A DNA stretch of 64,000 nucleotides. Source: Phialocephala subalpina. Lineage: Eukaryota > Ascomycota > Leotiomycetes > Helotiales > Mollisiaceae. A program made the translations under genes and the position numbers. Shown here in pieces: positions 5,287 through 58,471 of this stretch (its first letter is position 1; each line of letters begins with the position of its first letter). Below the pieces are notes generated by a model. That model ran no database searches. It saw nothing but the letters and a program-made list of their open reading frames with translations, and was not told the origin of the DNA. Where the stretch lies: positions 24,908 to 88,907 of the forward strand of contig FJOG01000008.1 of NCBI GenBank assembly GCA_900073065.1, written 5' to 3'.

Positions 5287-6479
5287 TGGGAGACAGCCTT
5301 ACAATTCTTGTACATATAGATGGTAGATACAGCACACATCGTCCAGCTGGACTTTAAATGAACATCATTGGGTCCAGCGGGGCTCCAATCCAGAGTTCTG
5401 CAGCTAAGCGAGAGCTCTCCTTATTCCCCCTTCATATCTACATACGGAAATATCCATCTCTCGTATTTGCTGTCTCCTCTCTCTCTCTCTNNNNNNNNNN
5501 NNNNNNNNNNNNNNNNNNNNNNNNNNNNNNNNNNNNNNNNNNNNNNNNNNNNNNNNNNNNNNNNNNNNNNNNNNNNNNNNNNNNNNNNNNNNNNNNNNNN
5601 NNNNNNNNNNNNNNNNNNNNNNNNNNNNNNNNNNNNNNNNNNNNNNNNNNNNNNNNNNNNNNNNNNNNNNNNNNNNNNNNNNNNNNNNNNNNNNNNNNNN
5701 NNNNNNNNNNNNNNNNNNNNNNNNNNNNNNNNNNNNNNNNNNNNNNNNNNNNNNNNNNNNNNNNNNNNNNNNNNNNNNNNNNNNNNNNNNNNNNNNNNNN
5801 NNNNNNNNNNNNNNNNNNNNNNNNNNNNNNNNNNNNNNNNNNNNNNNNNNNNNNTATTTTGTTCTGTCTCTCTCTCTCTCTCTCTTCTTTTTTACTTCTT
5901 TTTCTCACTCTATTTTTGTTCAATGTGAAACTTGGTACTTCGTATACAAGCAACGATCTGCTTGGCATTTTCGTGGCTTATCTGGGTCGGGGCCCTACCT
6001 CACGTGGGCGGATGTTGCTATTTAGATCTATATGGATTTGATTGGGTGTGGGGAAGAAGGGGCAATTGGGCTTGGGTTGAGCCGAGTAGAACTTGAAGAT
6101 GAGGCGTAAACCAAGGCAGAAGCTTAGCGTGGAGGGAAGGGGTTCGGTTTTGATGGAGGGGACCGGGTTTTGGGCACGTAGCGGGGAGATTTTATAGCTT
6201 CGTGTTGGTAGTTTAGGTCGGGGTTTCTTGCGAGATGTCCATTCTTCTCAGGGGCAACTTCCTGGGCAGAGATATTGACTTGATGGCTGCAAGCAATGAA
6301 AGGGGACGCATAAATGGATCACAAGGTTGAGAGATGCAGCATTAGTTCCAGAAAATTTCATTTAAGTTGTGATGCATACTCCAGGTGTGCCTTCTGAACC
6401 CCCGTCAATACGCCAATGACCCACCAGATTCCCATTATCCATCCCTACGCCAGATCATTTTTCATATAAGTTCTCAATC
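5287..6479. other. intergenic with assembly gap; no gene seen
   Basis: The 3' regions of DLD2 and of the convergent unknown gene at 6480 meet here. Positions 5491-5854 are N. Apparent reading frames crossing the gap are artefacts. I see no convincing coding or RNA feature in the resolved parts. Confidence 0.6.
5472..5885. repeat. CT/GA microsatellite broken by a 364-bp N gap
   Basis: The sequence enters the gap as (CT)n at 5472-5490 and leaves with a TATTTTGT stretch and another (CT)n at about 5865-5885. The gap was probably left where reads could not cross the dinucleotide tract. The N count may be an estimate, not a true length. Confidence 0.8.
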
Positions 6480-10939: not shown

Positions 10940-11986
10940 ATGTCTTCTTCCGCCCTTGACCTTAACCAACCAAGACGCCCAGTCAAACGACCTAACCCCG
11001 ATATCGCGATCCCTTCCATTGAGCTGTTCGTCAAGAAGCGCCGCGTCGAAGACGAGTCTGGTCATCTACCAAGCCTAAAAAAGAAGGAAGTGGTTCCCAG
11101 TGTTGGACTTCATCCTCTGATACATACGTCAGTATATGCCGATTTCAAATCGGACGACGAGTTGAGCTTGTTGCTGATGAAGTATCCAAGCCTCCTCGAA
11201 ACTGGCAAATGGCCCGACCTTGTCATCAAATGCCGCGGCAAGGAGTGGAAGGTCCACCGCGTTGTCGCTTGTCTTCCCTCGAAAGTGCTCTCCACTATAG
11301 TTGATAGTGGCTTTCTTGTAAGTCTCTCTGCTTAAATTTTTCAACTTAGTACTTGTCAAGACCATGTAAATATCTGAAATCCCCATCACTGCGTCTGATA
11401 TGCTGGTGAGATCCAGAAGATTGTCGAGACTGACTTTCAAGCTTCTGTACAGGAAGGTACGACAGGTGTCATTGATCTCAGTGCCAGCGAGCCTGACATC
11501 GTCGACTGCATGATTCGCTTCCTCTACACCAACGACTACTCCTACACAGAGAAGGCAGAATCCGTCCCTGTGGCCAACACTGGCTTCTTCCATCGAATCT
11601 ACTCAGGCGAAACCCTCGTGACCAACGCCAAAGTCTACGTCTTAGCAGAATTTCTTGATCTTCCAGCATTGAAGAAGACTGCAGCAGAAAAATTCGCCAG
11701 TCATCTCGCCCGGGAAGGTCTCTCGCCTGGCTTCACGGAGAGCTTGCGGATTATGTACTCCGAGACTCCAGAAAGTGATCGAGACTTGAAAGACTTGGCT
11801 CTCGGCTATGCTCTCCAGCATGCTGCTGGCTTGCTCGAGAGAGAGGACTTTGCGGCGTTTTGCAAAGACAAGGAGTCAAAGGAGTTCACATTCGAGATGC
11901 TCAAAGCGACGACTGAGAAGTCTTCAAAGCCTGTCAGGGCCCGTAAAGGCATTCGAAAGTATACTTACCTGTCAAAGCTTGGGTAG
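10940..11986 (+). CDS. BTB/POZ domain protein, copy 1
   Basis: Seen: exons 10940-11317 and 11453-11986 (135-bp intron) give 303 residues. The basic N-terminus has KRPNPD and VKKRR, a possible nuclear signal. The BTB fold starts at LLETGKWPDLVIKCRGKEWK, with the usual VHRVVACLPSKVLSTIV helix. After the intron come EGTTGVIDLSASEPDIVDCM, IRFLYTNDYSY, KVYVLAEFLDLPALKKTAAE and a BACK-like helical tail, ending with basic residues. Known: lone fungal BTB proteins of this type are dimerisers or Cul3 adaptors of mostly unknown role. The intron falls right before the E-x-(S/T)-T-G strand, as in the other intact copies here. Target unknown. Confidence 0.85.
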
Positions 11987-13608: not shown

Positions 13609-14456
13609 ATGTCTTCCACCGCGAAGGATAAAGGTCCCATCAGTGGCCTCGCAGCCGTCTCTGCTTCGTTGGTGCCCTCTTCCCCCGAAACGCGCCTGTA
13701 CTAACAAATGCCAGGCTCCTTGAGACTGGCCTCTACTCTGATCTGACGATCAAGTGTCAGGGTAGAATTTGGAAGGCCCACCGAAATGTCGTCTTCCTTC
13801 AAAGCAAGCCTCTCGCTGCTCATCTGTCTGGAGCTTTCAAGGTACCTCTTCATGTCCCTTTTCAGCGAACGGCAATTGATGTGTTGGTCTTGCAGGAGAG
13901 CGAAACCGGCGAAATTGACCTTCCCGATGATGACCCAAAGACCCTTGACCGCCTCATCCAATTCCTCTACAAGGAGACTTTTGATGACGAGCCCACTTTC
14001 ACTGGCGTACTAGCTGCGAATCAAGACAGTCGCCTAATTACTTGCACCAAGGTCTACATCCTGGCTGAAAAATATGACATTCCGGCTTCAAAGGAGTTAG
14101 CTAAAAGCAAGTTCGAGAAGGCTATTGCTACGGACTGGAACGACGGTTCCTTAGCTGCCATTCTGGAGATGATTTACACCGAACTACCTGAGTTTGACTG
14201 TGGCCTCAAGGACGTTGCGCTTAAGGCTACTTCTGAGCATATCGAGGAGCTCGTTGATAGAGGAGAATTTGCTGATGTCTGCAAGCAGAATGGAGAAATT
14301 GCATTTGATGTTATCAAGGGCTGCTTGGAGGGTAAGAACTTGACTAAATCGATGGGTATCTGTCCTCAGTGCGGACAGATTCGTGCTTCCAGTGTTTCCT
14401 GGCAATACAACACCAAGAAATTCTACTGTGGTCAGTGTGGTCGGACCTTTGCCTAG
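13609..14456 (+). CDS. BTB/POZ domain protein with C-terminal zinc ribbon, copy 2
   Basis: Seen: exons 13609-13667, 13715-13841 and 13896-14456 give 248 residues. The BTB core runs LLETGLYSDLTIKCQGRIWK, AHRNVVFLQSKPLAAHLSG, then ESETGEIDLPDDDPKTLDRL, IQFLYKETF, KVYILAEKYDIPASKELAKS. The last 35 residues have two Cys pairs, CPQC and CGQC, about 25 residues apart, which looks like a C2C2 zinc ribbon. Intron phases match copy 5 and, at the last junction, copy 1. It lies 235 bp beyond the AT-rich element. Inference: a tandem duplicate of the BTB family. Molecular role unknown. Confidence 0.85.
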
Positions 14457-24041: not shown

Positions 24042-25325
24042 TTGCGAGGTGGATGCGAAGGGCGCACTATAGCGGCCAAAAGCGACGTTTTAAATGCCAC
24101 GAACGCCGACGGCTCAAAGAAGTACCTTAACTTCACCCTCAGCATAACCTCCTTCCCCACGAAGATCCTGTTCAACACCACGGGCAAGCTCAGTGCCAAG
24201 CCGCGAGCCATCGGTGTTGAGTGCCTGTTCGGCCAGAGCATGTATGCCGCAGATCCTCGCTACAACGCCAGCAACCCAGGAAAGAAGATGCAAGCATTCG
24301 CCAGGAACAAAGTCATCGTCGCCAGTGGTACATTCAATACACCACAACTCCTAAAACTCAGCGGCATCAGACCAAAAGCAGAACTCACAAAGTTCAATAT
24401 CTCCGTCCTCGTCGACCCCAGGTGTGGGAAACCAGAGTAGGTCAAATTTCGCATTTCCTTTGAAGAGACATTCAGAGCCGAGCTTTTCGAGAGCACTGCG
24501 GACTCACCTCCTCTCGGCTCCTCGACTCCGCAAGCCACACTTCAATTCGCATACTGATTCATCTATAGTGCAAGACAACACCAAATTCGGATCCATTGCC
24601 CAAGCCGCCACAGACTTCGGCGACATTTCCCAAGTCTGCACATACGGGGCATCAGGCGACCCCTGCCTCGCGGCCTGGCACCAAGGCAAAGGACCCTACA
24701 CCGACGGCCCACTCGATTCCCTAATGTACAAAACCTCCAACGCAGCCATGAACGAACGCGGCATCTTCTTTGGTATCCCAGGCGCGAACCCATTCCGTGG
24801 CTACTACCCCTCCGACACAGTCAACACGATCTACAACGACCCACCCAGCACCTTCGACTGGTCCATGATCAAATCCATCCCACTGGCCGTCTCGGCCCCT
24901 GAATCTCGTCACTTCGAACCCCCGCGATGTTCCCGACGTCAAATTCCGCTTCTTTGAAGACGCAGACGCAGATAAAGACATCTCCGCCATCGCCGAAGCC
25001 GTCAAATTCAGACGCAAAATCTTCAACAATCTACCGAAAGAAATGCAGCCGTGGAAAGAAGTGCTTCCTTGTGACGGCACCACGACCTGTGATATGAAGA
25101 CGGTGATTAAGGAGCAGGCGTGGAGTCATCACGCTACGAGCTCTGCACAGATTGGAGCGGATAATGATCCGATGGCTGTACTTGATGGTAAGTTTAAGGT
25201 GCGCGGAGTGAGTGGGTTTGAGGGTTGTGGATGCGAGTGCGTTTCCGAGGACACCGGGTGGTTTTCCTGTTATTCCGACGTTCATGTTGGGGATGAAGGC
25301 TAGTGAGAGTATATTAAAGTGGGTG
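24042..25325 (+). pseudogene. GMC oxidoreductase remnant, 5'-truncated and frameshifted
   Basis: Recognisable GMC pieces lie in at least three frames: NKVIVASGTFNTPQLLKLSG (about 24310-24370), FGSIAQAATDFGDISQVCTY (24590-24650), VPDVKFRFFEDADADKDISA (about 24930-24990), EQAWSHHATSSAQIGADNDP (25112-25172, the catalytic-His region), then in a shifted frame VVDASAFP and PVIPTFMLGMKASESIL (25220-25320). The dinucleotide-binding GxGxxG N-terminal third is missing. The remnant begins right at the 5' end of the ankyrin gene, as after a rearrangement. It is not an obvious recent copy of the intact GMC gene at 44.5 kb (different motifs around the active site). Presumed non-functional. Confidence 0.75.
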
Positions 25326-25489
25326 ATGGAGGCTTAGATGTGAGCGCCACATCCGGGTGAGGGGCTTTAAGTCTGGGCCCTCTGTCATCTGGTTGGAGTA
25401 GGAGATTTCCCCTTGTTCTTCCCTTCCAAAAGTCACCTGGACATACATCTTCACTTCTCAAGCAGTATATATGACAAATGCACATACAT

Positions 25490-26737
25490 TCAGGCTTTCC
25501 TTTCTCCCTCCCCGCCCCCCTTCTTATCTTCCTTTGCTTTCTCCTCCTTCTCTTTCTGCGCTTTCATCTCGTGCTCATGCTTTAATAACTCTTTGATCCC
25601 TTCACTCGGCGGTATCTGCCTCACCCCCTCCGGCTTTTTCATCTATTTGACAACTTCATCAGCAATCCAAATCACGTCAATCTCGTCTGCAGTGGGGTTC
25701 TACTCACCACAACCCATTTATCAATATCCACGCCCTCCCTCTTCCTCCACTCCACCAACGCATCAAAATCCCTACACTGATGATTGATATTAAAATCCGG
25801 AAACGGATACCCCTGAGTCTCCATCCAATTCAAGGTATAGAGGTCGGTGTTACTAGTACACATCAAATTCTGCGCCAACACATCCACACAATGATTCAAA
25901 TGCACAAACCAGAGATCCGGATGACGTATTGTATCCGTCGAATAATTGTAATACTCAGGGTAGATTAGTTTAAGAAGTTGGTTTAGGCAATGCATTTGAT
26001 GAAAAACGTCAACTTGCGCCATATAGGCATCCCCTCCTAATCCCCAATACCCGTCATCAAATTTGGCGACGATTCCGGGGTCTTTCCCTAGTTTTAAGAC
26101 GTCTTCTCGCGAAATTGGGATGGTGCGAAGGAGTTCTAGGTCATCCCACCAGGCGTCCGTCTCGGGGTTTGGGTGTTGGCAGGCGTAATGTGGGGAGGGG
26201 CCCGGGTAAAGGGCTGCATTCATGAGCTTGACCGAGGTTTTGATGTCTAGGCGGTCGAGTATGGGCGCTGGAGGCAGGAGTGAGTGAGGGAAGGGAGATT
26301 TGGAGGAGATTGGGACGGGGTAGAGGGAAGGGGGAGAGGGACGAACAGTAGAACGAGGTTGCTTTCAAGAGGGCGTTTCGGCCGTGTGGAGCGTTGAGAA
26401 ACCATGTTAGGAAGAGTGTTATCGAGGTAATGAAGAAGATTGCGTTCAGGATGGGGAGGAGGATGAAGTGCTGCTGATATTTTCGTGGGATAGATTCATG
26501 TTTTGCGGTAGGGTGGTAAGGTTGTTGCAGAGATTCTGAGAATGAGTTGTCTTGATGGAGGGGTTTTGATTCTTGGTCATCAAGAGCTTGGTATTTTTGA
26601 GATTTTGAGAACCATATCTTGGAAACTCTTAGGCGTAAAGATGGTTTAGAGAGAGACCGAGAGGAGGAGAGACATTGAGATGTTGGTCTACTGCACGAAG
26701 TCGCGGTCACGTTGATGGAGCTCCAGATGAAAAGCAA
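25490..26737 (-). CDS. UstYa-family (DUF3328) oxidase-like protein
   Basis: Seen: exons about 26737-26347, 26267-25708 and 25642-25490. The N-terminal cytosolic part (KYQALDDQESKPLHQD) precedes one membrane helix, FILLPILNAIFFITSITLFL, then YSP-I-LDRLDIKTSVKLMN. The domain carries both family motifs: HQMHC in DVFHQMHCLNQLLKLIYPEY and HLNHC in WFVHLNHCVDVLAQNLMCTS. The C-terminal exon is Lys/Glu-rich (KEKEEKAKEDKKGGG). Known: UstYa/UstYb-type proteins catalyse oxidative cyclisation or hydroxylation of fungal RiPPs (ustiloxin, phomopsin, asperipin, cyclochlorotine). It lies 1.1 kb from a repeat-peptide gene on the other strand, the classic arrangement. Odd: I find no in-frame ATG ahead of the membrane helix, so either a short upstream exon is missing from my model or the start is damaged. 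Confidence 0.8.
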
Positions 26738-27874
26738 GTAGGAGATGACCTTCGGCGTCTCGCAGTCACCACCCTATCATTTCCTTAAAAGATCAACAAA
26801 TGTGGAACATCTTGCGAGGAAGGGTGCGAGTCCTTCGACATGTAGACCTTCCATTTTAGTCTTGGTCGGGGAAGAGTAGTCTGTCACGAGCAACACTACG
26901 CGAAAAGGGGGAATAAAATTGAGCATCAATAAGTATAGCGTGAGGGAACCGAGACCGGAGGAGTTGTAGTCGGTTCGCGATATCATGCTGGAGGGGCAGG
27001 TGCAGACCAGATAATGGATGATCGGCAGTTGGAATTAATCCGAACCAAAAATCGTACCTGCCTCGGAATGCAAATATATGCAGGTTTGCTGCACGAGTGC
27101 TGATTGACAGCCGGAAGCTTCGGTTTGAATAAGTTTTGATCGCACCTTCTGATTTGAGAATGATAAATGTCAGAAGGATACAAGTGAAAGGTGCATGAGG
27201 TGGGGTAATGGAGACACTGTAGGTTCCTCATTCTTGACCAACGCTAGAAATTGTCCAAGGAGATGATATGTTACAGAGAGAAAAAGTCGAATTGCGGTGT
27301 AAAAGGGTAATTTAGGGGAGAGGGTAGCTACTTCATGCTGAATCACCGTATCGCGAAGTTTTATTCGAACTTTGGTGGGGTCATCCGTCGATCATTCCCG
27401 ATGGCGTGGGCAATCAAGCTTTCAGCCACCCGCCTGGGCGACTTGTACGCTAGTTTCTGCGTGACGCCAAAGACAATGGCGTATCATTCGTCCGCTCGGT
27501 ATAAAGCGCCGTTCAAAAATCCACACCACCGCTTTCGTAGGGAGAGATCTTCAAGTTAATCGCCGGCATCTGCATCCTTCTCCCGATGGCAACCCATCAA
27601 CATGACTTCTTCAAGGTTTGGGCGCTTTCGAGGCCAGACTTGTGATACACTAGACGATTTTGATGACATTCGGGTGCAGATTCGTCATATAGCTTCGTAT
27701 AGCAGGCGGAAGAGGCCCTCAATAGAAAAGAGAGCGACAAATTCGAGCTCCATTCAAAGCGTATAAGTCATTACCACACCATATATTTTAACCGGAAGCC
27801 ATCTTCAATTCGCCATTAACTCCTCAGATAGCACCTGATACCAATCGTCCACCATTCTTCCTAACATCAATATC
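26738..27874. other. region between UstYa gene and peptide gene; nothing clear
   Basis: Probable shared divergent promoter region, plus unassigned sequence. Short frames on both strands (e.g. 26983-27231 minus, 27335-27559 plus) have no signal peptide or domain. A missing first exon of the UstYa gene could lie here. Confidence 0.4.
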
Positions 27875-28195
27875 ATGAAGTTCCAAATCCAAATTTTGGG
27901 TCTCCTTGCAGCCCTTCCATGCATCCTATCCGCCCCGGCAGCTGCACCAGAAGGTAAGTCTTCTTCTGTCGAAATAAGCAAGAGCATCACTGACAACTGT
28001 AGCCAACGTTGCGCGTGCACCGGAAGGTGATGATACCTTATATGAACCACTCGACTATGTCTACGTAAGACCTCAGCCATCTTTCAGTCGCACACTTTCG
28101 TGCCGTCAAGGAACGTACCTGAAGACGACAATACTTTGTACGAGCCATTAGATTATGTCTATGAAGGCAAAACATCGAATGTCAAGCGCGAGTAA
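27875..28195 (+). CDS. candidate RiPP precursor: signal peptide plus two Tyr-rich repeats
   Basis: Seen: exon 27875-27953 encodes a clear secretion signal (MKFQIQILGLLAALPCILSA, then PAAAPE). After a 49-bp GTAAGT...CTGTAG intron, exon 2 from 28003 encodes repeat 1, with GDDTLYEPLDYVY ending at 28064. A second DNA copy at 28112-28195 encodes DDNTLYEPLDYVYEG followed by a dibasic KR two codons before its stop. Ten residues, TLYEPLDYVY, are identical in both. Repeat 2 is one frame away from repeat 1. I find no credible intron that joins them (the in-phase option would be 23 bp; the 46-bp option ends in a stop). Known: dikaritin/KEP precursors are short secreted repeats cut by Kex2 and cyclised through Tyr by UstY proteins. 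Assignment is inference from architecture and neighbourhood. Present functional state is uncertain. Confidence 0.55.
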
Positions 28196-29332: not shown

Positions 29333-30792
29333 ATGGCTTTCTTCAGCTCCGGCTCCAACCTTCCAGTCATCACTCCATCGGCAGCTGAGAAAGCAAGCAA
29401 TTCCTCTCCGAATCCCATCGCGCCAGAAAGCCATATGGCAGAGGCTCTATCCTCGTGAGTCCAAACCCTAATCTCATGTTTTGTATATGCTAACTTGAAC
29501 TTCAAAGCATTTTTGCCAGTGGCAAGTACTCTGTATGTGAGATGCCATTGATTAATAACCCCCTTTCTGATTTGAAGTAGGATCTTGTTGTCAAGTGTAA
29601 AGGTCAACAATGGCAAGTGCACAAAGCTGTTGTGTGCATGCTATCGAAGCCTATTGGTGCAGCTTTTGATCGGGGTTTCATGGTGAGTGGAAAGCTCTAC
29701 TGCGAGGAATCTGTGAGCTATTCTGACGGGACTAAGGAAGCTAGCACGGGTGAGATTGACTTAGAAGATGACGATCCCAGAATCGTTCAGTTGATGTTGG
29801 AATACATGTACAAAGGCAACTTGAACATTCAAATACCAATTGCAAGGATGTCGCCTCCCGCCCATACTGTGGAAGGAAACGCCTCTCAATACGGGTTTCC
29901 GCCGGCACAACAATCGACGGTACTTCAACCACTTTCTGGAACCACTACCTTCCCAAACTTGATGGCATACCAGATGAGGATCAATAACCCTTCGAATATA
30001 TATTCAAACCCTAGTTCCATGACATCGGTATACCAGCCTTACAGTTATATGGCGTACCCGCCACCTTACACTTCTGCATCAACGATGATGATGTACCCGA
30101 CGCCTGTCAACGCTATTTCGAGTTCACACACGGGTTCTGCGACTGTGGGACTTGTACAGCCGAATGCCGCAAATAACGCTCTCGGCTCACCCTCGAATCC
30201 AATCGTTGTAGGCAACACCAGCTTGAATGACATATCCAATGGAAATGTTCGTCTTGGACCAGCCTCCTCCCCTGCCGCACAGCCTTCTACGGATGACTTG
30301 TCTAGAGGTCTGATTACGGCCGCAGAGGTGTACATTTTAGCGGACAAATATGATGTTCAAGGCCTGAAAGTGCTTGCGTGCGACAAGTACAAGGCCCTAT
30401 GTGAATACTACTGGAACAATGAGCACTTTATCGAAAGTTTAAGCATAATCTTCGATAACACACCAGATACCAACGAGACAGACATACTTCGAGTAGTTAC
30501 ACTCGATACAGCCTCCCTACATACGAAAGAGCTGCTTAGAAAGGAGACCTTCCAGGAGCTATGCCAATGTCGTGGGGACATTGCAACTGCAGTTCTTATG
30601 GCATCTGTCGAGATACCGTCTTCGCCGAGCAACAATAATGGAAGGAGTTTCTCGAGTGGAGATGGAGCGATGGGATCTGGGTCGGTAACTCACTTCTTCT
30701 GCCCCGTGGATGCTTCCCACAACTTTCAGATCTGGGCAATGCCAGACCAGTATTACTGTCATCAATGCGGGGTTATTCGAAGGTTGAATTGA
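29333..30792 (+). CDS. BTB/POZ protein with large insertion and C-terminal Cys pairs, copy 5
   Basis: Seen: exons 29333-29454, 29508-29532, 29581-29682 and 29737-30792 give 434 residues. The BTB core is SGKYSDLVVKCKGQQWQVHK, AVVCMLSKPIGAAFDRGFM, then EASTGEIDLEDDDPRIVQLM and LEYMYKGN. There follows an insertion of roughly 165 residues rich in Pro, Tyr, Ser and Met (e.g. YQPYSYMAYPPPYTSASTMM). The domain then resumes at LITAAEVYILADKYDVQGLK. The last 35 residues contain CPVD and CHQC, a likely zinc ribbon as in copy 2. Intron sites equal those of copy 2. Role unknown. The insertion looks disordered and could be a self-association or interaction segment (inference). Confidence 0.85.
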
Positions 30793-44495: not shown

Positions 44496-46433
44496 TCAAA
44501 CCCCCCAATCTTCCTTAATCAAATCACAACCCTTCTCCGCCAACGCATAAACAGCACTCTGAATATTCCCGCTCACTTGAAGTGGAATCGCACTAGCATC
44601 CACAACCCTCACTCCCTTAACACCCCAAACTCTCAACCTCCCATCCACAGCTCCCTCGCCCTGTTTACCCATAGAACAACTACTCATAGGGTGATACTCC
44701 GTCGTCGTGTGTCCCTTCACATACTCCACCAACCCCTCCAACGTCCCTATATCAACCTCAGGACCCGGCCAATACCGCCCCTTAAGCAACTCCTTCAATG
44801 GACTTGTTTCCGCCATTTTCATAGCTATTTGAAGACCTCGAGCAAGGATCTCTGCATCAACGTCTTCGAGGAGGTATGCGGGGTCGATATCTGGATCTTG
44901 GTTTGGATCTGAGGACGAGATGTGTACTGAACCAGCGGAGACGGGACGAGCGAGGCAGGAGGCAAGTGCGAAGCCTTGGCCACCGTGGGCTTTGACGTTG
45001 AGATCGCCGGCGAAGAAGGATTTTTGTGAGGAGACGTCTGAGAGGTTGAGTGCCGCGGGCAGTAACACAATCTGAATGCTGCCATCGTCGTGGGATGCGT
45101 AGTCTTCTGCTATCAATTTCTTCGCTGAGGGGAGAAGTCCTTCTTGTCCTTGTCCCTTGATGCTGTCCAGAATGCGTTTCTGAATCGAGGAGATTTCGTC
45201 CTTGGAACAGATGTCTGCTAGAGCGATGAAGCTGGTTGCTGAACCGCCGCTGCTGAGGGGTCCGGTTCTGGTTGCCATGTATTCTTTCTGTGCTGCTTCC
45301 AGCGTGGCGGGATCTTGGAGCATGTCGAGGGACTTTTGGCCGTCGATGAGTTCTAATCCAATACCTGTAGCAGGGTGATCCTGAAGGTTCTCTCCGACCC
45401 TTGGGTTCGCGACTAGACACTCAACTCCTGCTTTCTTCAATACATCTGGATTCCCGATTCCGGACAACTCGAGGATTTGTGGGGTTTTGTAGACGCCTGC
45501 TGAAAGCACCACCTCTTTCTTGACATTCACCACATGCTTCTTCCCACCATGCTCGAACTCAAGGCCCGTCACCGCAGGCTTGTCTTTCTCCAAGACTAGT
45601 TTCGTGACTAGAGCTTCCGTCAAGACATGCAAATTCGGCCTCTGAACATTGGGCAACAGATACCCAGTGACAGAATAACTTCTCGTCCCCTCCCCAGGCC
45701 CACCACTCCTATCAATACTACTCAAACTATGGAACGTCCCAATATGATCACCACTCCATCCATCTTTCGGACTCCCAAACCTCTTGCCCAATTTTGCACT
45801 AGCTTCAATCCATTCCTTCTCTTGCGGTAATCTCCATGTTGAGAAACTCGTATGAATAGGTCCTGTAGTGCCGTGGAAAGAAGGATCGTAGGTTGTTTCC
45901 AGGGGGATGTTGTTCTTTGATGCGTAGAGGGAAGGATCGGAGAAGTTCTCATGTTTCTTGAAATAGGGAAGCAGGGATTTGAAATCCCAGCCAGGATTGC
46001 CAAGCGCGGCCCACGCGTCGTAGTCTGATATATGTCCACGGTTATACATCTGATAATTGATACCGCTCGATCCACCAAGACCTTTCCCTCTGGACTGGTC
46101 GAGAGGTTTCTTGTTCTTCAATCCTCGCTACAATATCATCAGCTTTGTGAACATTTGGTGCTAGAAAGGGATTCCGACCTGCACAACAGTCTTATGCCCC
46201 CAATCATACTCCGGATTCATGATAGTCATCGAATACAACGCAGGCGTCATAATCAGCGGATCATTGATGTGCGCTGGTCCAGCTTCTAGAACTCCGACTG
46301 AGATGTTGGGATTCTCAGTCAGTCGGGCAGCGACCACGAGACCGGCTGTTCCACCGCCGACGACGATGAAGTCGTATTCATGTTTGAGGAAGTCTTCGAG
46401 GGAGCAGAGGGCGGGGAGGTTTGGATCTGTCAT
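44496..46433 (-). CDS. GMC-family FAD oxidoreductase (choline/alcohol dehydrogenase-like)
   Basis: Seen: exons 46433-46179 and 46127-44496 (51-bp intron) give 628 residues. The N-terminal FAD fold is YDFIVVGGGTAGLVVAARLT, with VLEAG as the ribose-binding acid. GLGGSSGINYQMYNRGH is the first GMC signature and VVLSAGVYKTPQILELSGIG the second. The active-site end has EYHPMSSCSMGK (catalytic His) and the partner Asn in VSGNIQSAVYALAEKG. No signal peptide is seen, so it is likely cytosolic or peroxisomal rather than secreted. Known: the family oxidises alcohols, choline or sugars. The substrate cannot be told from sequence alone. Intact, unlike the remnant at 24 kb. Confidence 0.9.
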
Positions 46434-57315: not shown

Positions 57316-58471
57316 CTATGCATAGATCTGCAAGGGGTTTAGTGTAAGATTATCTCGCATAACTTCAGGACTCTCCTCGGATGCTGCGATCAACTCTCTG
57401 GCAGCTTTCGGCTTCTTCTTCTTCTCTCTCATTTTTTCCTTCTTAGACGCCCCCTTAACCTTCTCGACCACAGGCGCAGGGGATAGCTCCCGAACTGGAG
57501 AGGATACGTCCTGACTTGGCGCCGGCTCATCAGTCATCTCATCCTCTAACAGCGTAGCCGGCGGGTGAGAGCTGGCAATGAATAAATGTCGGTCTATCAG
57601 CTTCACAATATCTAAGCCGAAGTCGCCATGGCTCTTCATGAGGTCGACAAACTCATCTCGTTTGAGGAAATGAGTAAGATGCTTGAAAGCAGCTTCGACG
57701 ACTACATCACGAAGCTGGCGATCGGCCGCGAGGGGATAATTTGTTTTCGTCCAAAGGTGGGTTGCTGCTTCGGAGAAGATGGGACTATCCCAGTGCTCAG
57801 TGACACAGGCCCGGTACTTATTTGTCGCCAAAGTCTTGAGTCCTGGGATGGAGAATTTGTTGCCGGCGATGTACATCTTGACGTTGAATAAAAGAGGGAA
57901 TGCGGGGTCGGCAACTATTGGCAGTGGCGTGGCCACGTCTTCGTCCTCATCCTCAGGAGTGCAAATGCTTGCTAAGCTCGCGCAGTCGTCTTGCTTACCA
58001 GCGTCATCAGGGTAGTCATCCGTATAGAGATATCGAATCATAGCTCGGATAGTTGGAAGTTCGTCCGCAGATAGGTCAATCTCGCGCAGAGAGGCTTCCT
58101 AGCAGTTGTCAGCGATACTTCCCAATCACGTATGACAGAATGCTCATACCTTGAATTGCTGCAGTTCAGCTGCCCTGGTGAGGAAGGGAGATCTGGTACA
58201 CACTACCGCGCCTGCATGGAATCAGCATCGATTTTTTCTGAAAAATATGAGGGAAATAGACAAAATTAGTTAGGAGTTCCCAAGCACGGCATTACTGATG
58301 GACGACTCATAGGGAGGGGTTCTTACAGTGGACCCTAAAGGTTTCGCCGTTGCATCTCAGAATCAGATCAGCATACCTCTCGGACTCCAGAAGTCTGTTT
58401 GAAGTCAGCAGGTCAGCGTACGATATCTATCAGACTGGTTACCCTTTGATTGAAGAGAGCAGGTCTGCCAT
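57316..58471 (-). CDS. BTB/POZ domain protein, copy 6 (divergent)
   Basis: Seen: exons 58471-58443, 58394-58327, 58202-58150 and 58098-57316 give 310 residues. The BTB core is LLESERYADLILRCNGETFR-VH, CTRSPFLTRAAELQQFK, then EASLREIDLSADELPTIRAM, IRYLYTDDYPDD. An acidic insert (PEDEDEDVATPL) follows, then KMYIAGNKFSIPGLKTLATN and a helical tail. A basic run (KGASKKEKMREKKKKPKAAR) could be a nuclear signal. The splice junction before E-A-S is shared with the other copies, but sequence identity is low, so this is an old paralogue. The 124-bp intron before exon 3 has more than one possible acceptor. Confidence 0.75.

What the first reader, a model, noticed from the sequence alone, without database searches (positions are those of the whole stretch)
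25490..28195. Candidate undescribed RiPP (dikaritin-like) locus: UstYa-family gene beside a repeat-peptide gene
A DUF3328 protein with both HxxHC motifs (HQMHC, HLNHC) lies 1.1 kb from a divergent small gene. The latter encodes a secretion signal, two copies of the 10-residue segment TLYEPLDYVY and a C-terminal dibasic KR. Established: ustiloxin, phomopsin and asperipin precursors combine a signal peptide, Tyr-containing repeats and Kex2 sites with UstY oxidases next door. The segment is not one of the core peptides I recall (YAIG, YVIPID and FYYTGY families). The link between the two genes is inference.
Basis: partly seen in the sequence, partly recalled or inferred. Interest (0 to 1): 0.85.

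Follow-up and report, generated by a model that had tools for sequence, protein, structure and literature searches.

The report
Decayed fungal cyclic-peptide gene pair
A root-dwelling fungus carries an enzyme gene beside a small gene that repeats one ten-residue peptide, a layout fungi use to make ring-shaped peptides; a relative shows a cleaner version, and the copy here looks worn out.

Summary
The UstYa (DUF3328) gene at 26617-25490 (-) is confirmed (PF11807, 172 bits; HQMHC, HLNHC). The divergent small gene starts at 27875 with a signal-like exon and a good 49-nt intron. Its two TLYEPLDYVY copies (28035, 28133) differ at 8 of 30 bases, all silent, so the peptide was selected. But they lie 98 nt apart, in different frames: of 377 introns tried, only six, of 20-38 nt, join them, and no dibasic site flanks copy 1.

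The link between the genes is supported: a relative's protein (P0030) has three LY[EQ]PLDYVY cores, each between KR sites, and shares source and contig length with a UstYa relative (P0026). I found the core in no paper searched.

The window matches Phialocephala subalpina (PAC_06227, deposited with one core). Here the precursor frame is broken or oddly spliced, dibasic sites are mostly gone, the UstYa frame has no start codon, and a neighbouring GMC oxidoreductase looks like a relic. Best reading: a decayed copy of a dikaritin-type pathway that is well formed in a relative. RNA-seq would decide between decay and a changed precursor.

The parts
25490..26617 (-). UstYa (DUF3328) family gene, three exons 26617-26347, 26267-25708, 25642-25490; the first codon given is the one aligned with relatives' initiator Met, but it is not a start codon here
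   Evidence: PF11807 172.2 bits on ORF 25672-26364; exon ends set by reading against P0001; no in-frame ATG in exon 1 or the 53 open codons upstream
25987..26001 (-). first HxxHC motif, HQMHC
   Evidence: H122, H125, C126 invariant in 15 of 15 aligned rows
25888..25902 (-). second HxxHC motif, HLNHC
   Evidence: H155, H158, C159 invariant in 15 of 15 aligned rows
27875..27953 (+). precursor gene exon 1: signal-peptide-like MKFQIQILGLLAALPCILSAPAAAPE
   Evidence: sequence; shared with P0028 and nearly so with P0029; no signal-peptide program was available
27954..28002 (+). intron 1, 49 nt, GTAAGT...CTGAC...TAG
   Evidence: removed in deposited P0028 and apparently read through in P0029
28003..28064 (+). 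exon 2: ANVARAPEGDD + core copy 1
28035..28064 (+). core copy 1 TLYEPLDYVY
28065..28132 (+). stretch between the copies, begins with a splice-donor-like GTAAGA; the frame of copy 1 leads into that of copy 2 only with an intron of 20-38 nt
28133..28162 (+). core copy 2 TLYEPLDYVY, 8 of 30 bases differ from copy 1, all silent
28163..28195 (+). tail EGKTSNVKRE and stop in the frame of copy 2; only dibasic KR after a core
24042..25340 (+). GMC oxidoreductase, probable relic: pieces in different frames, N-terminal part not found in 3 upstream + strand ORFs
   Evidence: end of the gene by reading

Best explanation
The two genes belong to a dikaritin-type ribosomal peptide family of Helotiales. In the well-formed version the precursor enters the ER by a signal peptide, Kex2 cuts at KR on both sides of each core (in P0030: KR, 4-5 residues, LY[EQ]PLDYVY, E[DG], KR), and the membrane-anchored UstYa oxidase links Tyr side chains of the core to neighbouring residues; peptidases then trim the ends. 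Shown here: the layout, the silent-only difference between the copies, the KR-flanked cores in P0030, and the shared source and contig length of P0030 and a UstYa relative. Inferred: signal peptide, Kex2 cutting, cyclisation, product. In the window's genome (Phialocephala subalpina or near-identical) the pair is most likely a decayed copy that no longer makes the product: core copies out of frame with each other, dibasic sites absent around copy 1 and changed after copy 2, no start codon in the UstYa frame, GMC neighbour apparently a relic.
For: UstYa 172.2 bits, both motifs. Copies differ by 8 silent and 0 replacement changes. P0030: 3 cores with KR before and after each; P0031: 1 core with KR after it. 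P0026 (UstYa, 75% identity over 33% of the query) and P0030 are both from source 'ena', one contig, 3,004,108 bases. Decay: 6 of 377 introns join the copies, all 20-38 nt (with intron 1 left free, gave second introns of 20, 23 and 38 nt only); no dibasic pair in the copy-1 frame; in the copy-2 frame KR near the end and an RK 22 residues before the core, in letters that overlap copy 1; 0 in-frame ATG in exon 1 and 53 codons upstream; 0 ATG-bearing upstream exons with a strong donor; GMC pieces match profile positions 150-206 of 218 and 9-114 of 139 in different frames. The best of the 27 UstYa matches is 84% identical, so no annotated P. subalpina protein of this gene turned up there. No second copy of the core in the genome.
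Against: P0029, from an unnamed related organism, keeps exon 1 and exon 2 to YVY nearly unchanged (22 of 26 plus one gap, 19 of 21 residues, by eye) while intron 1 read in the same frame matches at 1 of 16, so selection acted on this form after the lineages split, although P0029 has no dibasic pair in its 80 residues either. In P0031 the residues before EGKR are not ...YVY and end in Q, which reads like an intron between YVY and EGKR (by eye), and P0029 changes character right after YVY: an intron between the cores may be normal in this family. P0031's core is preceded by KER, with KR only 14 residues before LY, so the missing upstream dibasic of copy 1 is weak evidence. The records P0030 and P0031 show no signal peptide; I presume their exon 1 is not in the record. 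The UstYa gene has no stop or frameshift in its three exons; 31 weak GT-AG models with an upstream ATG exon exist. Introns may explain part of the GMC frame changes. sees only proteins of 0.55-1.75 query length. The distance between P0026 and P0030 is unknown.
Confidence: 0.6

Rival explanations
1. The clade of P. subalpina and P0029 has a working but changed precursor with one core: after the intron that follows YVY the protein ends soon, so the core lies near the C-terminus and needs no downstream dibasic site.
For: Exon 1 and copy 1 are conserved between the window and P0029 while intron 1 is not; neither has a dibasic pair in that frame. The deposited model, from an annotation that used ESTs and manual curation (PMC5148876, passage), is a one-core protein.
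Against: Copy 2 carries silent-only differences although it would be non-coding; the UstYa frame lacks a start codon in this genome.
Confidence: 0.15
2. A working two-core precursor joined by a 23-nt intron at 28065-28087.
For: GTAAGA and TTTCAG are good splice ends, and this choice keeps both copies in frame; P0031 and P0029 suggest an intron at this place in relatives (by eye); silent-only difference means both copies were translated for long.
Against: 23 nt is far below the 80.2-nt mean intron of the species (PMC5148876, passage) and below intron 1 (49 nt); no dibasic pair would lie between the copies in that protein.
Confidence: 0.12
3. The breaks are sequencing errors: the species was assembled from 454 reads, which misjudge homopolymer lengths (recalled).
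For: 454 at 25x is stated in PMC5148876 (passage); frame changes occur in the precursor and the GMC gene.
Against: Missing dibasic sites and the missing start codon are not homopolymer length errors; large ORFs elsewhere in the window are open. It is not shown that the window is that assembly: contig lengths differ (1,777,353,081).
Confidence: 0.07
4. The small gene is an unrelated secreted protein that happens to lie beside a UstYa gene.
For: UstYa genes are common here (56 exon-level matches); the window copy lacks proper Kex2 sites.
Against: Even with 56 genes, a random point lies within 1.26 kb of one in about 0.3% of the genome (arithmetic); P0030 has the KR-core layout and shares source and contig length with a UstYa relative.
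Confidence: 0.05

Closest known systems
Asperipin-2a cluster (aprA, aprY, aprT, aprR)
   Same: repeat precursor with Tyr-containing cores and a single UstYa homologue, four genes without tyrosinase (PMC6514808, passages)
   Different: core FYYTGY against LY[EQ]PLDYVY; no transporter or reductase of that kind seen beside the pair among the ORFs scanned; copy here looks broken
Ustiloxin B and phomopsin clusters
   Same: Kex2-cut repeats and UstYa-type oxidases
   Different: cores YAIG and (recalled) YVIPID; they have a tyrosinase (UstQ, PhomQ), while the only tyrosinase match on this contig is about 1.6 Mb away
Kex2-processed repeat proteins (KEPs) of Umemura 2020
   Same: P0030 has three cores between dibasic sites
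   Different: the window gene would fail that survey's rule of at least 3 repeats between dibasic sites (PMC7329392, section 13); P0030's record shows no signal peptide
Two other UstYa-adjacent repeat genes of the same genome (L014; L006/L024)
   Same: repeat peptides beside UstYa matches, with KR
   Different: cores around DELYASYDK and LFWYKTG; sequences unlike this one

Membership tests
UstYa / DUF3328 oxidase | PF11807 match over cut-off | tested here: met
   172.2 bits, cut-off 25
UstYa / DUF3328 oxidase | two HxxHC motifs | tested here: met
   HQMHC and HLNHC; H, H, C invariant in 15 of 15 rows
UstYa / DUF3328 oxidase | translatable gene with start codon and N-terminal membrane segment | tested here: not met
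   hydrophobic segment in exon 1 by eye, but no in-frame start codon found
Dikaritin-type RiPP locus (window copy) | precursor with signal peptide | tested here: inconclusive
   N-terminus looks like a signal peptide by eye; no predictor available
Dikaritin-type RiPP locus (window copy) | repeated cores in one reading frame | tested here: not met
   frames differ; 6 of 377 introns join them, 20-38 nt
Dikaritin-type RiPP locus (window copy) | Kex2 dibasic sites on both sides of each core | tested here: not met
   none in the copy-1 frame; in the copy-2 frame KR 8 residues after the core and RK 22 residues before it
Dikaritin-type RiPP locus (relative P0030) | repeated cores between dibasic sites | tested here: met
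   3 cores, KR before and after each
Dikaritin-type RiPP locus (relative P0030) | signal peptide | tested here: inconclusive
   none in the 113-residue record, by eye; a separate first exon is presumed
Dikaritin-type RiPP locus (relative P0030) | UstYa gene nearby | tested here: inconclusive
   P0026 has the same source and contig length; distance unknown
Dikaritin sensu Ding et al. (as cited in PMC12048977, passage) | tyrosinase, methyltransferase and several DUF3328 genes in the cluster; S41 peptidase common | tested here: not met
   none of 53 tyrosinase and 9 S41 matches lies near the window; one UstYa match on this contig; methyltransferase only as far as 28 of 42 large ORFs were scanned
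Dikaritin-type RiPP locus | cyclised peptide product | not testable with these tools
   needs LC-MS

The most novel reading that the evidence does not exclude
In the lineage of P. subalpina and P0029 a multi-core, Kex2-cut precursor has turned into a single-core one: dibasic sites were dropped while selection kept the signal peptide and the first core, so the peptide is released in a way that does not depend on dibasic sites, and may be linear if the UstYa partner is really dead here.
Probability: 0.15. Interest if true: 0.55.

Novelty: new member of a known kind. Interest (0 to 1): 0.42.

Why it matters
It adds a core sequence, LY[EQ]PLDYVY, to the fungal UstYa-linked peptides, in a family of root endophytes (Mollisiaceae) for which I know of no described one. 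It also shows a locus that is well formed in a relative and damaged in one genome, so that loss or re-design of a RiPP precursor can be followed, and it warns that two-copy, frame-split precursors escape surveys that ask for three repeats between dibasic sites.

Tried and rejected
Considered and set aside: chance repeat (no other such repeat in the window, silent-only differences); a paralogue elsewhere that carries the function (no second core match in the genome; best-scoring UstYa paralogue 42% identical); an RNA feature (0 Rfam matches at gathering score); a solved structure of the oxidase (0 matches at E up to 1). Pfam label PF27581.1 shown for P0030 was not reported by the Pfam copy used here (0 families for P0030 at E up to 10), so its meaning is unknown. 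Of 27 UstYa relatives only P0026 shares a contig length with any of the 4 precursor sequences; for the other 26 no link is shown, and no precursor was found for the closest one (P0001, 84%). Topic searches in the literature listed no paper on this locus, as far as titles and abstracts show.

Full report
WHAT IS IN THE SEQUENCE. The ORF 25672-26364 (-) matches PF11807 (UstYa) at 172.2 bits over profile positions 37-219 of 220 and carries HQMHC and HLNHC, whose His and Cys are invariant in 15 of 15 aligned rows (the rows are the window ORF and 14 of the 27 matches). Comparison by reading with P0001 (Mollisiaceae sp. DMI_Dod_QoI, 84% identity over 83% of the query) gives three exons, 26617-26347, 26267-25708 and 25642-25490, with introns of 79 and 65 nt (letters). 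Exon 1 carries a hydrophobic segment.

The small gene is divergent, with 1,257 nt between the two. Exon 1 (27875-27953) reads MKFQIQILGLLAALPCILSAPAAAPE, then comes a 49-nt intron with GTAAGT, CTGAC and TAG, then ANVARAPEGDD and core copy 1. Copy 2 begins 98 nt after copy 1, so in another frame.

IS IT MORE THAN CHANCE? The two 30-nt copies differ at 8 bases, in 7 of 10 codons, all silent. In simulations of 8 random substitutions (2 starting copies, 4 transition biases, 200,000 draws each) the highest frequency of an unchanged peptide was 3e-5. A scan for identical 7-residue peptides 21-400 nt apart on one strand found only this one in the 64-kb window. The motif has 2 matches in the 68-Mb genome, both here, and 0 for the reversed-pattern control. 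Both copies were therefore under selection as coding sequence for a long time.

ORGANISM. P0028 is PAC_06227 of Phialocephala subalpina; its 101 residues are what the window gives if an intron runs from 28065 to 28151. The window is that species or nearly so (Helotiales, Mollisiaceae). Contig lengths differ (1,777,353; 1,799,081), so I do not claim the same assembly.

THE FAMILY. A protein search with the copy-1 frame gave 2 matches among 4 candidates; a profile of P0028, P0029 and the separate copy-2 frame gave 4 matches among 4,235 candidates, two of them the input rows. New are P0030 (E 1.9e-8) and P0031 (E 3.3e-5). P0030 reads KR-TPES-LYEPLDYVY-EDKR-LNVKEKR-SEADN-LYQPLDYVY-EDKR-LNVKEKKR-EVEN-LYEPLDYVY-EGKR-LNVKRE...; P0031 reads EGKR-LNVKER-APEEDDT-LYEPLDYVY-EGKR-LNVKEST (sites listed). 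This is the layout of Kex2-cut repeat precursors (PMC7329392, sections 7 and 13 read), except that neither record shows a signal peptide; I presume a separate first exon. P0030 and the UstYa relative P0026 (75% identity over 33% of the query) are each from one contig, source 'ena', of 3,004,108 bases: almost surely one contig, at an unknown distance. In PMC7329392, 22% of 7,878 KEPs have a DUF3328 gene nearby, the next position being the commonest, and Tyr-containing repeats are enriched there (65.6% against 38.2%).

STATE OF THE WINDOW COPY. (1) With intron 1 fixed, 6 of 377 GT-AG or GC-AG introns of 20-399 nt put both copies in one protein; they are 20, 23, 23, 35, 35 and 38 nt long, and only the 23-nt GTAAGA...TTTCAG looks to have good ends. 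The mean intron of the species is 80.2 nt (PMC5148876, passage). (2) No dibasic pair occurs in the copy-1 frame; in the copy-2 frame the tail is EGKTSNVKRE where P0030 and P0031 have E[DG]KRLNVK, and the only other dibasic, RK, lies 22 residues before the core in letters that overlap copy 1. (3) The UstYa frame has no ATG in exon 1 or in 53 open codons upstream, while P0001, P0003 and P0020 begin MWFS at the matching place; no ATG-bearing upstream exon with a strong donor was found, 31 weak ones exist. (4) The GMC oxidoreductase on the other side (24042-25340) lies in pieces in different frames, and its N-terminal part was not found in 3 upstream + strand ORFs; introns may explain some of the frame changes, but by reading the last one leaves no room for an intron. 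(5) The best of the 27 matches is 84% identical, so the species' own annotation seems to lack this oxidase, though that search sees only a range of lengths. Together these favour decay.

AGAINST DECAY. P0029 (organism unnamed) shares exon 1 (22 of 26 residues, one gap) and exon 2 to YVY (19 of 21) with the window, while the intron between them, read in the same frame, agrees at 1 of 16 residues (counted by eye). Selection thus went on after those lineages parted, although P0029 too has no dibasic pair and changes character just after YVY. In P0031 the residues before its first EGKR do not end in YVY but in ...LTSLQ, which reads like a translated intron that ends at EGKR (by eye). So an intron between YVY and EGKR may be an old feature of the family, and the donor-like GTAAGA after copy 1 is then not a sign of decay in itself. 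P0031's core is preceded by KER, with KR 14 residues before LY, so the lack of a dibasic before copy 1 weighs little. I cannot tell the readings apart without transcripts.

HOW IT WOULD WORK. In relatives: ER entry by signal peptide, Kex2 cuts at KR, UstYa-type oxidation that ties Tyr side chains into rings, and trimming. UstYa/UstYb (with a tyrosinase) and AprY are reported as essential in ustiloxin and asperipin-2a formation (PMC6514808, passages). For this family all steps after translation are inference. No tyrosinase or S41 peptidase match lies near the window (the one tyrosinase match on C14 is about 1.6 Mb away; 53 and 9 matches in the genome, lower bounds), so the layout is nearest to asperipin-2a. 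Pfam was run on 28 of the 42 ORFs of at least 170 aa in the window and on 5 shorter ones, besides the copy-2 frame; short exons were not scanned, so a further cluster gene could have been missed.

CONTROLS FROM THE SAME GENOME. UstYa matches number 56 at exon level. For 30 of these, loci are held (L003-L032, about 1.5 kb each side, some overlapping; L005 is the window's own gene and ends before the copies). Repeat hits came from 7 of the 30 (L006, L014, L016, L017, L020, L023, L024, which printed at most 25 hits a locus). L014 shows six ADL[SG]ALVDDELYASYDK units, each preceded by KR, and L006/L024 a LFWYKTG repeat with KR. In the hits printed, L016, L017 and L023 look like DNA-level repeats, and L020 is a single 7-mer. 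So better-formed UstYa-adjacent repeat genes exist here, and the window gene differs from them.

NOVELTY. No paper in the library holds YEPLDY, LYEPLDY, LYQPLDY, PLDYVY, TLYEPLDYVY or PAC_06227. Supplementary files, where KEP lists are kept, could not be read, and PMC7329392 lists Phialocephala among the genera of types G-2, G-3 and G-9 (passages), so a listing of some related gene in a supplement is possible, though this gene would fail the three-repeat rule. Papers seen: PMC7329392 (abstract, sections 7 and 13, two passages), PMC5148876 (abstract and passages), PMC12048977, PMC9233826, PMC6514808 and PMC6339444 (passages; for some also the start of the abstract in a listing).

Noticed in passing
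L014 (G000:C43:1848703-1852188), about 2.9-3.45 kb: Six units around ADL[SG]ALVDDELYASYDK, each preceded by KR, after a signal-like stretch, next to UstYa matches: a well-formed precursor of the same general kind.
   Followed up: partly
L006 / L024 (G000:C36:39926-45903): Repeat peptide with LFWYKTG units and KR between two UstYa matches.
   Followed up: partly
window 24042-25340 (+): GMC oxidoreductase in pieces in different frames, N-terminal part not found; an open GMC ORF lies at 44496-46127 (-).
   Followed up: partly
window 25987-26001 (-): Relatives P0002, P0012, P0020 and P0026 start, end or gain extra residues at HQ|xHC as if an intron sat there; the window gene has none.
   Followed up: no
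window 13632-14456 (+), 29581-30792 (+): Two BTB/POZ genes in one window; the ORFs at 11399-11986 (+) and 57316-58098 (-) look alike by eye but gave no Pfam match.
   Followed up: no
window 5491-5854: Run of N, a gap or withheld stretch; not looked into.
   Followed up: no
P0030: Carries a precomputed Pfam label PF27581.1 that the Pfam copy used here did not report; its meaning is unknown to me.
   Followed up: partly
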